64,000 bases of DNA, taken from Pneumocystis sp. 'macacae'. Its lineage: Eukaryota > Ascomycota > Pneumocystomycetes > Pneumocystales > Pneumocystaceae. The stretch is from the NCBI GenBank assembly GCA_018127085.1, contig CM030728.1, positions 248,001 to 312,000 on the forward strand, given 5' to 3'. The position numbers and the translations under genes were made by a program. The notes beneath the pieces are model-generated. The model did not search any database and was not told the origin of the DNA. It saw nothing but the letters and a program-made list of their open reading frames with translations. Positions within the stretch are counted from its first letter, which is position 1, and each line of letters starts with the position of its first letter. Positions 25,532 through 30,832 of the stretch are shown here, piece after piece.

Positions 25532-28320
25532 TTACAATGTTAATGTATATTTTGGCAACTGGATGGAATGAATTGGATTATTCGGAGATTTAATATCAGT
25601 AAGTAATTCTAGTACGGAAAGAACCTCTGATGGCTCTGGAAGATGCCAGTTTGCTGCTGTAGCCTAACGGAAATACATAAGATTTATATTAAAATAGGGA
25701 AAGTAGATATACTTTATTTGATGCACCGATAGTCACTGTAAAGTATGGTTTATCTTTTAGATCATGTCTTTGTTTCAAAACGCGGAACATGTCTTTTGAT
25801 TCAGTATTTTCTAAAAAAGTTCAAACTGAATTACCTTCGTCTGTTTTATCATCTCCTGTACTAAAGACAAAATCCGGTTTTTCATCTTTGTACATATCTA
25901 ACAACTGACTTGCTACTCTACCCTTGTTGATGAAGAAAGGCCGAACTTCTATATTTGCTTTCCCATTCAATACCTCAACATCATAATTCGAGGTGATAAG
26001 ACTCTCTAAATGATTTTGGCATTCCAATGCTTGAAAAAGGCCGTAGTCTGGATCTGCACGACGATAATGCCACGTAAGTGTACACCTTTTTTGTTCAATA
26101 AATGAGCCTATACTATGTTGAAGAATAAGGAATCATATAGAGAAAACATTTACCCTGTGTGCGTTCTGTATAGTACTCGAAGATTTTATACACATCTTCT
26201 TGCCATGATAAGTCCATATTTTCTGTGAGATCTACCCAATCAGACGTATTTGGGAAACGCATAAAACAGCCATGTTCAGCACTGGCAGTTTAGCTAGTGG
26301 ATATTTTGCAGCGTTTAATCCCACCTTAGTCCCAATTGAGGAATATTATCAAACCATTGTGCTAAAAAATTCTGGTCACGCCCAGAAATTATCCATACTT
26401 GGTTTCTAGGGTTTTCTGCCAGTGCCTTCAAAACACATATAAGTCGTTGAGACGGAATAGCAACGAGCGGGTCCTTAACAATTGGCGTTAATGTTCCGTC
26501 ATAGTCAAACAAAAACAACCGATTATTCGCCTGACGATACGTATCTGCCAATAATACTGTATCGACAATAGGTGTAACCTGGTTATAATTAAAAGTCGCT
26601 AGATTCGTTAGCAATCGCGATATAAAGGACGAAGTCCATGTCTGAATGGTATTCTTAGTCACATAATTATACAGCTTGACCTGCCGCGCCTTCTTCTCCG
26701 CCTCTGATATACAAAGCGCCTCATTGATCTTCTTTGCTGTGTCCTAGACCACCGTTGGCTTCTCTTCATCAAACTTCCCACTGTACCGCCACATCCCACG
26801 GATTAACCTGGATTGCATCTCGAAGAGCATCCTTCGTCCCCGAAAACTCCGACAGCAGCAGCGGCCCATTGTTCCCCTTCTGGCATATAACATACTCCAG
26901 ACTCGTCGTATTCATACTGTCCCTGATCGCCGTAATAATCCCCACATCCCCCGACCTCAGAAGCGCAAAATACTCATCCTTCTCCAAATACTGGTGGTAG
27001 TGGTGCACCGGCGTAAACTCCAGCGACCCATACGTCCCGTTTATCTCCGCCACCAGATCCTGCACCTGCTTCTCAAACTTCGATGTGTCGTCGTTCACCG
27101 GCGACGTCACCTGGATAAACACCACCTGGTTCCTCCACCTCGAAAACTGCTTCAGAAAACTCTCAAACGCCCGCAGCCCCTGCAGCACCCCCTGCACCTC
27201 GTATATCTTTGCACTCCCAATAAGTATCTTCTTGTCCGAGTACAGCTCCCTGATAAACTGCATCTTCTCCTCCGTCTTCTGCGTCTGCGACTCCCGCTCA
27301 ACATACTCCGCATCAATCCCCATCGGAACCACCTCTATCGCCACATACGCCCCATTCACATCAATCCCCTTCCCTATAGAGTCAAACCCCAGCACCCGCG
27401 TGCATGTGCTCACAAAGTGTCGCGAGAAAGAGTAGCTCTGGAACCCAATCATGTTCGCCCCAAGCATCCCCATCAGTATCTCCTTCCGCTCTGCCCCGTC
27501 AGCCCCTCATCCCCCATCCCCCACTACATACTTGGAAGACACCGGAAGATCTCGGAGCTCGGAAACGGCCCATACACAAACAGCCCCACATATGCATCCG
27601 GAATCTTCTCCCGCACAAGCCCCGGCACCAGCAGCAGGTAGTAGTCATGCACAATTACTGTCCCCGTTATTCCCGCCTCCACTCCATCCACATACTGATG
27701 TCTCCCGCCCCATACACCCCCGCAATCGCCTCCACATATGCCTCGTTGAACCTCACATAGTCCTCCCAGCACGCCTGCTCCCCCCACTCCCCCGTTGTGT
27801 TGCTCCACACCCGGTAGTGGAACAGCGGCCACAGCACTACTCCTCTGCAGCCCCTCTACATACTGGGCGTCCTACCTGTGTTTGCATACCTCCTCCACCG
27901 CGACTGCTGCTCAACTGTCTCTCCCGACCGCGCGTCTCCCGCCTCGCCCAGCATCCAGACCGGCACAATCTCCTGCCCACTGACTCTTGCGAACGACGCA
28001 ACAAAGTCCTCCTTGTTTTTCCCGCTTACTGCGACCGCCCCGCCCTCTGTGCTGTCGACCCCGATCTCCCCCGTCCACCCCACCACCACTGTCTTCCACT
28101 CTGTCTCCCGCGACAGCCACGAGATAGACGAGAAGACCGACGACTTGCCTCTTCTCGCCCGGAACCTCTGTCTGTAAGCTGCTTCCTCTGCCTCTCCCCT
28201 ACCCAGTCTCCGCTCTTTGGGTCCAGGAACGGCCTGTATGGGATGCTGCTGCATGCATAGACGACTCTGCCTGAGCAGCCCAGCGGCCGCTGTGCGCTGG
28301 GCGGCACTGTGCCTGACATG
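25532..28320 (-). CDS. tps2: Trehalose-6-phosphate phosphatase TPS2
   Basis: Ten exons join in frame to 802 residues: 28203-28320, 27876-28167, 27696-27842, 27532-27657, 26787-27490, 26325-26743, 26154-26281, 25835-26107, 25733-25792 and 25532-25673. The N-terminal two thirds is the glycosyltransferase-20 fold (SVFSSISWLSRETEW, VLWPLFHYRV, IIIVHDYYLLLVPG, PFPSSEIFRCLPKRKEIL, GMLGANMIGF). The C-terminal phosphatase has the HAD nucleophile motif LFDYDGTLTPIV, IISGRDQNFL, SAEHGCFMR and the metal-binding STGDDKTDED. It removes phosphate from trehalose-6-phosphate made by TPS1 (55.5-57.3 kb). In the synthase-like domain the usual DGMN is DSMN. Composition changes sharply within this one gene: the phosphatase exons are about 33% GC and the first exons about 65-70%. 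Confidence 0.95.
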
Positions 28321-28419
28321 TGCTCGCGGCTGCTTCCGCCGCCGCTTTGGGCGCGCACATCTGGAGGGCGTGTACAGTGCTGGGTCATACAGTGTATTGT
28401 GCACGGCGTGCTACAGTGT

Positions 28420-29007
28420 CTAGTTGATGATCTGTGCAGCCTCGGCGAGGATCTGTATTCCGTCTGCGCCAATGGCCCTTGCGATGTTTGGGTTGCACAG
28501 GAACGAGATGCTCATCTTTGCTGGCGGTCTTGGGGCGTTGGCGGGGTGGATGGGTGCAGTGTGGTGGACGCTGTGGTCCACGAGGATCCGGATTGATGCA
28601 GCAGGATGGACAGTGTCGGCAGAGAGAGTGTCGGTGGGGCGGGGGGCGGAGGGCTGTGGTGCAGAAGGGCCCGGGGGAGCAGCGGGTGCATAGGGCGGGG
28701 GGACGCTGGAGGTGTGGACAGTGTGTGCGTGCTGGCGCAGGTTGTCGAGGCGGGAGAAGGTCCGGCCGCAGAAGCATCTGAAGGGGCGCTCTCCGGTGTG
28801 TTTTCTGGGGTCAGGAGGACAGAGAGAAGAGACATACCTGATGTGGCGGGCGAGATGCTCGTTGCGGGAAAACTGCATGCGGCAGGAGCCAAAGCCAGAG
28901 CACTGGAAGGTCTTTCTCTTGGGGCGCGGGTTGGCAGGCAGCGCTGCCATCGCTGCGTCGGCGCACCGCTTGCGGGCACCAGACGCGCATATATGCGGGT
29001 GGCGCAT
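28420..29007 (-). CDS. C2H2 zinc-finger transcription factor
   Basis: Two exons, 28838-29007 and 28420-28804, are separated by a 33-nt intron whose removal joins HLARHIR to KHTGERPF. Two C2H2 fingers result: [20 protein letters not shown] with RHIRKH, and [20 protein letters not shown] with TVH. The finger pair and the KRKTFQC lead-in match a widespread fungal family of two-finger regulators. I cannot name the orthologue. The rest is Pro/Ala/Ser-rich and ends AEAAQIIN. The start is ambiguous: Met at 28950 (165 residues, [13 protein letters not shown]) is more likely than Met at 29007. It lies about 100 bases upstream of TPS2 on the same strand and is divergent from CUE3. Confidence 0.85.
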
Positions 29008-29069
29008 ATAGCGCGAGGGAGCAGTGGATGGGTGGACAGAGATACCCGGGAAGAGCGGGGCGGGCAGAG
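28951..29069. promoter_or_regulatory. Divergent zinc-finger/CUE3 promoter at the GC summit
   Basis: The two preferred start codons (28950 minus, 29070 plus) leave 119 bases. GC is about 70%, so no TATA-like box is present. This is the only promoter in the window made of GC-rich DNA. It lies within the peak of the composition gradient. Exact transcription starts cannot be seen. Confidence 0.45.
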
Positions 29070-30832
29070 ATGGGGGAGGAGTGGGAGGGGGCGGTGGAGG
29101 GGTGGACGCGGTGGCTGCGGGGGTGTGCAGGAGACAGGAGGTTTGGGGAGTGGGTCAGGGGGGGGGAAGAGGGGCTGGGGGCGGTGTGGGGGTTTGTATA
29201 TGCGTACATGGAGGCGCATACACCGCGGAAAAACGCGGACGAGCAGGGGTTTACGGGGGGGACGGAGACGAGGGCGGAGGACGAGCTGTCGGAGGCGGTG
29301 TTTGTGGTGGTGGAGCGGGCACTTGTGGAGGGGGAGTGGGTGTTGGGACAGCCGTTTGTCCTGTTTGACTTTTGTGTGATGTATGCGGCGGACAGTGTGG
29401 AGCGGGTGGTGGAGGTGGTGGAGCGGGTGTCCCGGAGGGCGGAGGGAGAGGTGGTGGCAGCGGCAGAGCGGGTGCGGGCGGAGTATATGCGGGAGCTGGA
29501 GGGGCTTGGGGAGGGGAGGATGGGGGGGGAGAGGGAGCGGGTGCAGCTGCAGGCGCTGACGGTGTTTGTGCGGGTGTGTGGGGGGGCGACGGGGGTTTTT
29601 GTGGAGGAGGGCTTTGTGGGGTGGGTGGCGAGGGTGTATGAGGGGGGGGGGGCGGGGGTGGGGGGGGAGCTGCTGTGGCTGGTGTTTACGCTGTTTACGT
29701 CGTTTCTATGGGAACCGCGGGTGTGTGAGCAGATTGTGCGGGGGGTGAGGTGGCTGTATGAGGAGTGGGTGGGGGGGCGGCTGGTGCGGGACCTGGTGCT
29801 GGAGACGGAGATTGTCGAGCGGTTCTACGAGGCTGCGCTGTTTTCGCAGGAGATAGTGTCGGAGCTGCGGGCGCTGAGGGAGGGCGCGGATGCGGGGTTG
29901 CTGGGGCAACCGCTGCCGGGGGAACGGTTGCCGGGGGAGGGGCAGCTGCGCGAGCTGTTTCCGGGGTGCAGCGACGCGTTTGTAGCAGAGTGTCTGCGTG
30001 CACACGACGGAGACGTCGAGGCGGCGGCGTGGAGGATTCTCGAGGAGAGCGGTGCAGCAGGGAGGCAGCAGTGCGGGGATGCAGGTGTGCACAAGGAAAG
30101 GTAAGCACGGTGCTGGGGTAGGGAGGGGTGCTGATGACAGTCTGACGGGGTGCCTGGATGTCCGGACACACATGTGTCCGGACAGTGTAGATGCTGTCAA
30201 GTCTTTGGCTGGAGGAAATGGGATGGACAGAGCAATGGAGATATCAAGAATATACAGGGGAAAGAAGGGGTATGTATGTAGAAAAATGCTATGGTTCTGA
30301 GGGATAAAGATATGTATCAGCGGATGCTATGTTGGAGGACAAGTTGTTTGTGCGTGAACACAAGCATATGATAATGGAGTCGCTGCTTGCTAATGATGAG
30401 GACGAGAAAGACGATACATATGAGGATGCAGGCTCTAGTGAGGGGGAGGCATGGGAACAGTCGAGGGTGAACAGAGTAGATGGGGTGCTGTACACAACAT
30501 ATATGGTGTCGCCAGAAGTCTTTGATCGGACGGTGGAGGCGCGGCGATCATCTGATAGAAAAGAGCTTCGTATGAACACAGGGATGTCTGATGAGCAGAT
30601 TGAGTGTTGGAAAATGATGCTGGACAAAAATGTGGGTGCATATGTATTTATTTTTGTGCTGACTTTGAAGCCTCGACAAGCAGAAAAATATCAAGACATG
30701 TATGGTTTTTCAGGGAGCGAAGCACCGTCTTTAGCCAAATGGAACAGTGATAAGAATGGTGATTTTAGTAAAAACACTTGCAAACCACAATTTTTCAATA
30801 CAAGAGGCAAAAAGAGCAGAAAAAATAGATAA
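29070..30832 (+). CDS. cue3: CUE-domain protein CUE3/ASCC2 (ribosome quality control)
   Basis: Exons 29070-30100, 30141-30269, 30310-30631 and 30671-30832 join in frame to 547 residues. The CUE domain near residues 290-330 ([20 protein letters not shown], then [10 protein letters not shown]) binds ubiquitin. After it come [10 protein letters not shown] and ADAMLEDK, then the C-terminal signature [20 protein letters not shown] with [19 protein letters not shown]. This matches yeast Cue3 (Rqt3) and human ASCC2, part of the complex that splits collided ribosomes. The N-terminal 280 residues are biased to Gly, Val, Glu and Arg because most codons end in G. A start at 29028 (14 extra residues) is possible. 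The last two exons are back at 35-42% GC. Confidence 0.88.
29159..29667 (+). repeat. Cluster of long G-runs (G-quadruplex-prone)
   Basis: The plus strand carries G-runs of 8 (29159-29166), 11 (29642-29652), 5 (29654-29658) and 8 (29660-29667), with many shorter runs between. The last three runs are separated by single bases and satisfy the usual four-run quadruplex pattern. They lie in the CUE3 coding strand and the reading frame stays open through them. Confidence 0.75.
30159..30184. repeat. Perfect 12-bp inverted repeat
   Basis: Arms TGTCCGGACACA (30159-30170) and TGTGTCCGGACA (30173-30184) are exact reverse complements, separated by two bases. The repeat lies in CUE3 exon 2 as modelled, just after the 30101-30140 intron. 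It could form a hairpin in DNA or RNA. Confidence 0.8.

What the first reader, a model, noticed from the sequence alone, without database searches (positions are those of the whole stretch)
26300..30800. A 4-kb GC island with smooth shoulders in an AT-rich fungal chromosome
GC rises from about 33% to over 70% and falls again over roughly 4 kb, crossing exons, introns and intergenic DNA of three intact genes. The left shoulder lies inside TPS2 and the right shoulder inside CUE3. This is the pattern expected if repair at a recurrent double-strand-break site has favoured G and C for a long time (GC-biased gene conversion), as described in mammals, yeast and some plants. I know of no described case in Pneumocystis. 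The summit is at about 28.3-29.9 kb. Selection on expression is unlikely because introns share the shift.
Basis: partly seen in the sequence, partly recalled or inferred. Interest (0 to 1): 0.88.

Follow-up and report, generated by a model that had tools for sequence, protein, structure and literature searches.

The report
GC islands with mirror-image strand bias
In the macaque lung fungus Pneumocystis macacae, many stretches of about 4,000 bases have become very rich in G and C, with C piled up left and G right of a central point, as if something that keeps happening at that point, most likely DNA breakage and repair, rewrites the sequence one strand at a time.

Summary
The island is real: GC rises from 28% to 0.59-0.71 over about 4 kb, across three intact genes and their introns. 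The genome (P. macacae) has 33 candidate sites. Of the 19 whose sequence I could read, 19 have C left and G right (one, L029, only weakly). At fourfold sites the polarity holds in genes of both orientations, switches inside one exon (RRN3) and persists at a convergent gene pair, so transcription and codon choice do not explain it. Symmetric GC-biased gene conversion alone does not either: right of the centre, in + genes, G is 0.70 (background 0.08) while C stays near background (0.08). TPS2 shows a burst of P. macacae-specific changes confined to the island's inner part (32 against 5 in P. jirovecii). Best explanation: recurrent breaks at fixed centres, probably meiotic, whose repair favours C on the 3'-tail strand and hence G on the newly made strand. 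The break is inferred, not shown; a replication origin is the main rival.

The parts
26766..30353 (.). GC island core (400-bp smoothed GC above 0.48); shoulders reach about 26,300 and 30,800
26766..28360 (.). left arm: C-rich on the + strand (200-bp skew -0.28 to -0.52 up to 28.2 kb)
28361..30353 (.). right arm: G-rich on the + strand (200-bp skew +0.21 to +0.71 from 28.4 kb)
28200..28500 (.). switch zone; best single point about 28,361
25825..28319 (-). TPS2 (trehalose-6-phosphate phosphatase), start codon to near the C-terminus; the last exon was not modelled. Left shoulder and left arm
27491..27531 (-). TPS2 intron, 41 nt, + strand C 24, G 3: shares the bias
28420..29154 (-). C2H2 zinc-finger gene (open stretch; true start not fixed), read against the local G-richness; fourfold sites of its last 150 codons G 46, C 9 on the + strand
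28805..28837 (-). probable intron of the zinc-finger gene; + strand G-rich (13 G, 5 C in the 33 bases printed)
29028..30832 (+). CUE3-like gene, PMAC_003316; right arm and right shoulder

Best explanation
The island marks a place where DNA is repeatedly broken at or near 28.36 kb and repaired outwards for about 2 kb on each side. Repair changes the sequence in a strand-polar way: on each side the strand that runs 5'->3' towards the centre (the 3' single-stranded tail after a break) gains C, so the strand running 5'->3' away from the centre (the one newly made in break repair) gains G. Breaks scattered over some hundreds of bases mix both polarities near the centre, which gives high GC without skew there. 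The rise in GC is then largely the sum of two one-sided biases and not a symmetric preference for G:C pairs. The same process acts at dozens of places in this genome. Shown: the islands, the polarity in 19 of 19 read, its independence of gene strand, the lineage-specific burst in TPS2. Inferred: that the trigger is a break, that it is meiotic (SPO11), and whether the bias lies in mismatch correction or in errors of repair synthesis.
For: 19 of 19 islands, with midpoints set by GC alone, have negative skew left and positive right; mean difference 0.54 against 0.003 (sd 0.12) in 26 non-island segments of the window; paired p = 4.6e-12. Mean profile: on the left C climbs from 0.15 to 0.43 while G stays at 0.15-0.20 until about 900 bp from the switch, then reaches 0.26; the right is close to the mirror image. 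Fourfold sites: 29 of 30 gene-side units follow the side. Arms average 2.07 and 2.21 kb. TPS2: 32 P. macacae-derived against 5 P. jirovecii-derived residues at 27.5-28.3 kb, 9 against 6 at 25.5-27.5 kb. SPO11 Toprim domain in the genome, E 9.2e-32. Islands of contigs C1-C10 are spaced more evenly than random.
Against: No break or crossover map. The polarity is opposite to the human meiotic-break mutation footprint as I read its passages. No shared motif at the centre beyond simulation. One island (L029) has a left/right difference of 0.16, within the background range (maximum 0.22). In genes read inwards the minor base also rises (0.23-0.27 against 0.08), so a symmetric or coding-strand component exists too. 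The matching SPO11 frame holds one in-frame TAG (an intron or a defect; not resolved). The spacing test rests on a list that may be incomplete.
Confidence: 0.5

Rival explanations
1. Constitutive replication origins: the leading strand becomes G-rich on both sides of a fixed start point.
For: Same polarity as origin skew (recalled from bacteria and Candida); fixed centres; wide, even spacing.
Against: Mean skew is near zero beyond about 3.3 kb on both sides, whereas origin skew should run for tens of kilobases; the window outside the island shows no such switch. It does not explain GC rising from 0.28 to 0.65. The TPS2 shift is absent from P. jirovecii.
Confidence: 0.15
2. Ordinary, strand-symmetric GC-biased gene conversion at a stable meiotic hotspot.
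For: Smooth GC peak through exons, introns and spacers; burst of changes towards GC-coded residues in one lineage.
Against: Predicts equal rise of G and C on one strand. In right-arm + genes fourfold G is 800 of 1144 and C 95 of 1144; in TPS2 at 26.9-27.5 kb C is 71 of 82 and G 0 of 82.
Confidence: 0.12
3. Transcription-linked asymmetry or R-loops spreading from a bidirectional promoter, or codon choice.
For: 22 of 30 gene-side units are read outwards and 22 of 22 of those are G-rich on the coding strand; regression finds a coding-strand effect about half as large as the side effect.
Against: 7 of 8 inward-read units are C-rich on the coding strand, as are the zinc finger here and UCH in L036. 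L036 is a convergent pair and keeps the polarity. RRN3 switches from C-ending to G-ending codons inside one frame.
Confidence: 0.06
4. Assembly artefact, contamination or foreign DNA.
For: None found beyond the odd composition itself.
Against: The genes are Pneumocystis orthologues in one frame across the left shoulder and, for CUE3, the right one; P. canis TPS2 and CUE3 carry consecutive locus tags; 19 islands share one architecture; the assembly used Nanopore and Illumina reads (PMC7940399, passages). Raw reads were not examined.
Confidence: 0.02

Closest known systems
Runaway GC evolution in gerbils (PMC7403616, PMC6573468; passages read)
   Same: Lineage-specific GC surge that changes conserved proteins and is ascribed to recombination.
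   Different: Clusters visible at megabase scale; in the passages 'GC skew' means excess GC, and no strand switch was seen there. Here about 4-kb islands with a strand switch.
Human meiotic-break mutation footprints (PMC7615360; passages read)
   Same: Strand-asymmetric changes over about 2 kb on each side of a break.
   Different: C>N and A>N changes on the tail strand, as I read it; the islands gain C on that strand.
GC-skew switch at constitutive replication origins (recalled, not looked up)
   Same: C-rich to G-rich switch at a fixed point.
   Different: Origin skew reaches far and does not raise GC; here it fades by about 3 kb.
CpG-island promoters with R-loop skew (recalled)
   Same: GC-rich, G-rich RNA-like strand away from a centre.
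   Different: Here the sign does not depend on gene direction.
Pneumocystis centromeres (PMC10327204; passages read)
   Same: Kilobase-sized genic regions at fixed places.
   Different: One per chromosome and on average 3.9% lower GC in P. murina and P. carinii; no GC figure for P. macacae centromeres was in the passages I saw.

Membership tests
GC-biased gene conversion hotspot | Local GC peak in coding and noncoding DNA alike | tested here: met
GC-biased gene conversion hotspot | Excess of changes towards G and C in the lineage | tested here: met
GC-biased gene conversion hotspot | G and C favoured equally on a given strand | tested here: not met
GC-biased gene conversion hotspot | Coincides with mapped breaks or crossovers | not testable with these tools
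   no map held
GC-biased gene conversion hotspot | Meiotic break enzyme present | tested here: met
   PF21180 match at C12:220,493-220,945, E 9.2e-32, one in-frame TAG
Constitutive replication origin | Skew switch with G-rich leading strand | tested here: met
   19 of 19 islands
Constitutive replication origin | Skew extends over replicon scale | tested here: not met
   mean skew near zero beyond about 3.3 kb; 12-18 islands per outer bin
Constitutive replication origin | Early firing or ORC binding | not testable with these tools
   no data held
R-loop / CpG-island bidirectional promoter | Sign of skew follows transcription | tested here: not met
Centromere | One per chromosome | tested here: not met
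   1-3 candidate islands in each of the ten longest contigs
Human-type break mutation footprint | Loss of C and A on the 3'-tail strand | tested here: not met
   C is gained on that strand; human pattern from passages; holds only if the switch is the break site

The most novel reading that the evidence does not exclude
Base composition at dozens of fixed centres is driven by a strand-polar process that favours C on one strand (G on the other) and not G:C pairs as such. The strand switch would then be a sequence-readable mark of break or initiation sites to within a few hundred bases, and the GC island its by-product: a compositional drive not described before.
Probability: 0.45. Interest if true: 0.92.

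Novelty: new variant of a known kind. Interest (0 to 1): 0.86.

Why it matters
It would separate two things that are usually confounded, GC bias and strand bias in break repair, and it gives a map of candidate hotspots (or origins) in an organism that cannot be cultured. A conserved enzyme such as TPS2 is being rewritten by it, so tests of adaptation in Pneumocystis that ignore the islands may find false signals of selection.

Tried and rejected
Replication, transcription, codon choice, centromere and foreign DNA were considered as above. A shared motif at the switch: 6- to 8-mers within 250 or 400 bp of 19 switches stayed in or close to the range of second-order simulations (one 7-mer at 250 bp was in 15 windows against a simulated maximum of 14 in 60 runs). 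The apparent excess came from comparing balanced with skewed composition. Cytosine deamination of the outward strand on top of gBGC would predict T above A on the right; AT skew shows no left/right difference (p = 0.97). A composition-based coding score and a residue-type score were poor guides to real frames, the latter leaning towards G-rich coding strands; Pfam was used instead: 60 frames with a family; 8 proteins, 6 with a family. Two of the domains used are below Pfam's curated cut-off (SUZ12-like Zn in L020, aminotransferase in L029). The F-box gene in L021 was left out because it lies outside that island. The first-order z-scores printed are wrong (integer overflow) and are not used. 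The first TPS2 model had faulty joins (see below); its counts (35 against 4 in the inner part; 8 against 6 outside) are replaced (32 against 5; 9 against 6).

No paper describing this was seen in 10 searches, of which only listings were read except for the papers named; most subscription papers are not in that library.
Full report
WHAT IS THERE. The window comes from Pneumocystis macacae: its CUE3-like protein is 100% identical to PMAC_003316, and the window is contig C9:248,001-312,000 of an 8.27-Mb genome held in 19 contigs. Background GC is 28%; it climbs from about 26.3 kb, holds 0.59-0.71 between 27.7 and 30.2 kb, and is back to background by 31 kb. TPS2 (minus strand), a C2H2 zinc-finger gene (minus) and CUE3 (plus) lie in it with recognisable domains. 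TPS2 splices into one frame through seven GT-AG introns of 35-46 nt and starts at about 28,319.

THE MISSED FEATURE. The + strand is C-rich on the left (200-bp skew -0.28 to -0.52 between 26.6 and 28.2 kb) and G-rich on the right (+0.21 to +0.71 from 28.4 to 30.7 kb), with the change at about 28.36 kb. The zinc-finger gene is on the minus strand but sits in the G-rich arm (fourfold sites of its last 150 codons: G 46, C 9 on the + strand), so gene direction does not set the sign.

HOW MANY. I searched the genome for runs of 16 G/C letters next to A or T (complete lists, lists cut). Grouped by hand they give 33 places including this one, leaving out 4 homopolymer runs and 8 places that carry one shared sequence (six are within about 12 kb of a contig end; contig lengths of C15 and C16 were not seen). 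The first 20 regions in contig order were fetched: 18 of the 33 places and two of the homopolymer runs (L028, L035). The 18 are islands with plateaus of about 60-70% GC; the two homopolymer loci are not. The other 14 of the 33 could not be fetched. Further candidates appear, unverified. Of places I could not fetch, three show both C-rich and G-rich words (C11:401-405 kb, C13:233-236 kb, C14:580-581 kb); all three have C left and G right. I saw no opposite order within 5 kb in these lists (one search lists 100 of 121 rows).

THE POLARITY. With each island's midpoint set by GC alone, 19 of 19 have negative skew left and positive right; the mean difference is 0.54. The weakest, L029 (-0.03 and +0.13), differs by no more than some background segments do; 4 of 26 background segments show the same signs by chance. 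Mean composition about the switch: on the left C climbs from 0.15 to 0.43 while G stays at 0.15-0.20 until about 900 bp from the switch, then 0.26; on the right G climbs to 0.43 while C is 0.18-0.25, and 0.28 next to the switch. A and T are lost alike, and AT skew does not differ between sides.

NOT TRANSCRIPTION, NOT CODON CHOICE. I scanned 60 frames from the islands with Pfam (28 gave a family) and 8 more proteins (6 gave one). At fourfold sites inside those domains, plus one TPS2 exon and CUE3 exon 1, + strand letters are: left, + genes C 308, G 140 of 605; left, - genes C 393, G 79 of 642; right, + genes G 800, C 95 of 1144; right, - genes G 81, C 52 of 191. Background coding-strand values are C 0.068, G 0.079 (967 sites in seven long frames of the window, not individually verified as genes). 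29 of 30 gene-side units follow the side. The exception, a weak aminotransferase match in L029, lies right of that island's skew switch but left of its GC midpoint. A coding-strand effect exists as well (coefficient 0.76, 95% interval 0.13-1.56, against 1.58, 0.76-2.11 for side). RRN3 in L026 goes from C-ending to G-ending codons within one frame. L036 is a convergent pair, DEAD helicase left and UCH right, both read inwards and both C-rich on the coding strand. First and second codon positions shift the same way. Within TPS2, C makes up 71 of 82 fourfold sites at 26.9-27.5 kb with G at 0; towards the switch G appears (8 of 34 at 28.1-28.3 kb), as expected if centres are scattered.

HISTORY. 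TPS2 of P. carinii, oryctolagi, canis and jirovecii lacks the shift. With the first three as outgroup, 27.5-28.3 kb holds 32 P. macacae-derived and 5 P. jirovecii-derived residues among 152 polarisable sites; 25.5-27.5 kb holds 9 and 6 among 434. In the inner part GARP residues are 69 of 225 in P. macacae and 43 of 225 in P. jirovecii. In CUE3, GARP/FYMINK counts over alignment columns 1-385 are 135/37 in P. macacae, 46/124 in P. murina and 90/66 in P0002, an unnamed, probably transcript-derived relative that is nearer to P. macacae (60% identity) than the others are (33-41%). P0002's first 77 columns are rich in alanine and C-type residues (G-type 14, C-type 21, Ala 20), unlike P. macacae (34, 8, 8), as if in that species the centre lay further right. 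Its species is unknown, so this is only a lead.

MECHANISM. Three processes share the observed polarity, in which G accumulates on the strand that runs 5'->3' away from the centre: break-repair synthesis, leading-strand replication and outward transcription. Transcription is contradicted. Replication skew should reach further than 3 kb. Break repair fits arms of about 2 kb, the lineage-specific burst and the even spacing (21 islands in contigs C1-C10; smallest gap 76 kb, P = 0.0056; distance from contig ends, P = 0.0013; the list may be incomplete, so these values are provisional). SPO11 is present. Why repair should favour C on the tail strand is open. Biased mismatch correction needs heterozygosity; errors of repair synthesis do not, and may suit a self-fertile fungus better (recalled biology). 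Strand-directed mismatch correction set by break processing is documented: in mouse cells 60-80% of corrections favoured the strand with the longer 3' flap, with no GC preference (PMC9001825, abstract and discussion read). The human break-mutation footprint has the opposite sign as I read its passages (PMC7615360).

LITERATURE. The P. macacae genome paper (PMC7940399, passages) has no occurrence of 'GC content' or 'GC-rich' in its main text. The gerbil papers (passages) use 'GC skew' for excess GC. The centromere paper (PMC10327204, passages) reports lower GC at centromeres of P. murina and P. carinii.

VERDICT.

Noticed in passing
L017, L018, L019, L020, L022, L023, L027, L029, L031, L032, L033: Degenerate tandem arrays with a unit of about 11 bp (GCATAYA every 10-11 bp or its reverse complement); runs of four or more units in 11 of 19 islands, 2.66 copies/kb in islands against 0.15 simulated and 0.36 in flanks. 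GCATACANNGCATACA with one mismatch allowed has 62 matches in the genome against 2 for the reversed control. Position relative to the switch varies.
   Followed up: partly
genome-wide; PMC7940399 (passages): P. macacae is reported to have 190 species-specific Arg/Gly-rich 'RG proteins', nearly half of them subtelomeric. Some of the rest could be products of GC islands, since Arg and Gly codons are GC-rich; not tested.
   Followed up: no
C3:306, C4:553169, C8:480287, C10:472864, C13:6509, C15:374631, C16:10593, C16:338686 (genome G000): The same GC-rich sequence recurs at eight places, at least six of them within about 12 kb of a contig end.
   Followed up: no
G000:C12:220493-220945: SPO11 Toprim match with one in-frame TAG; an intron or a defect, not resolved because the letters were withheld.
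   Followed up: no
P0002 against P0001 (CUE3, columns 1-77 of alignment A2): The nearest relative's N-terminus is shifted towards C-type residues and alanine, where P. macacae is shifted towards G-type residues: the centre may have moved between species.
   Followed up: partly
window 1-64000: AT skew on the + strand is negative in most 1-kb windows, inside and outside the island.
   Followed up: no
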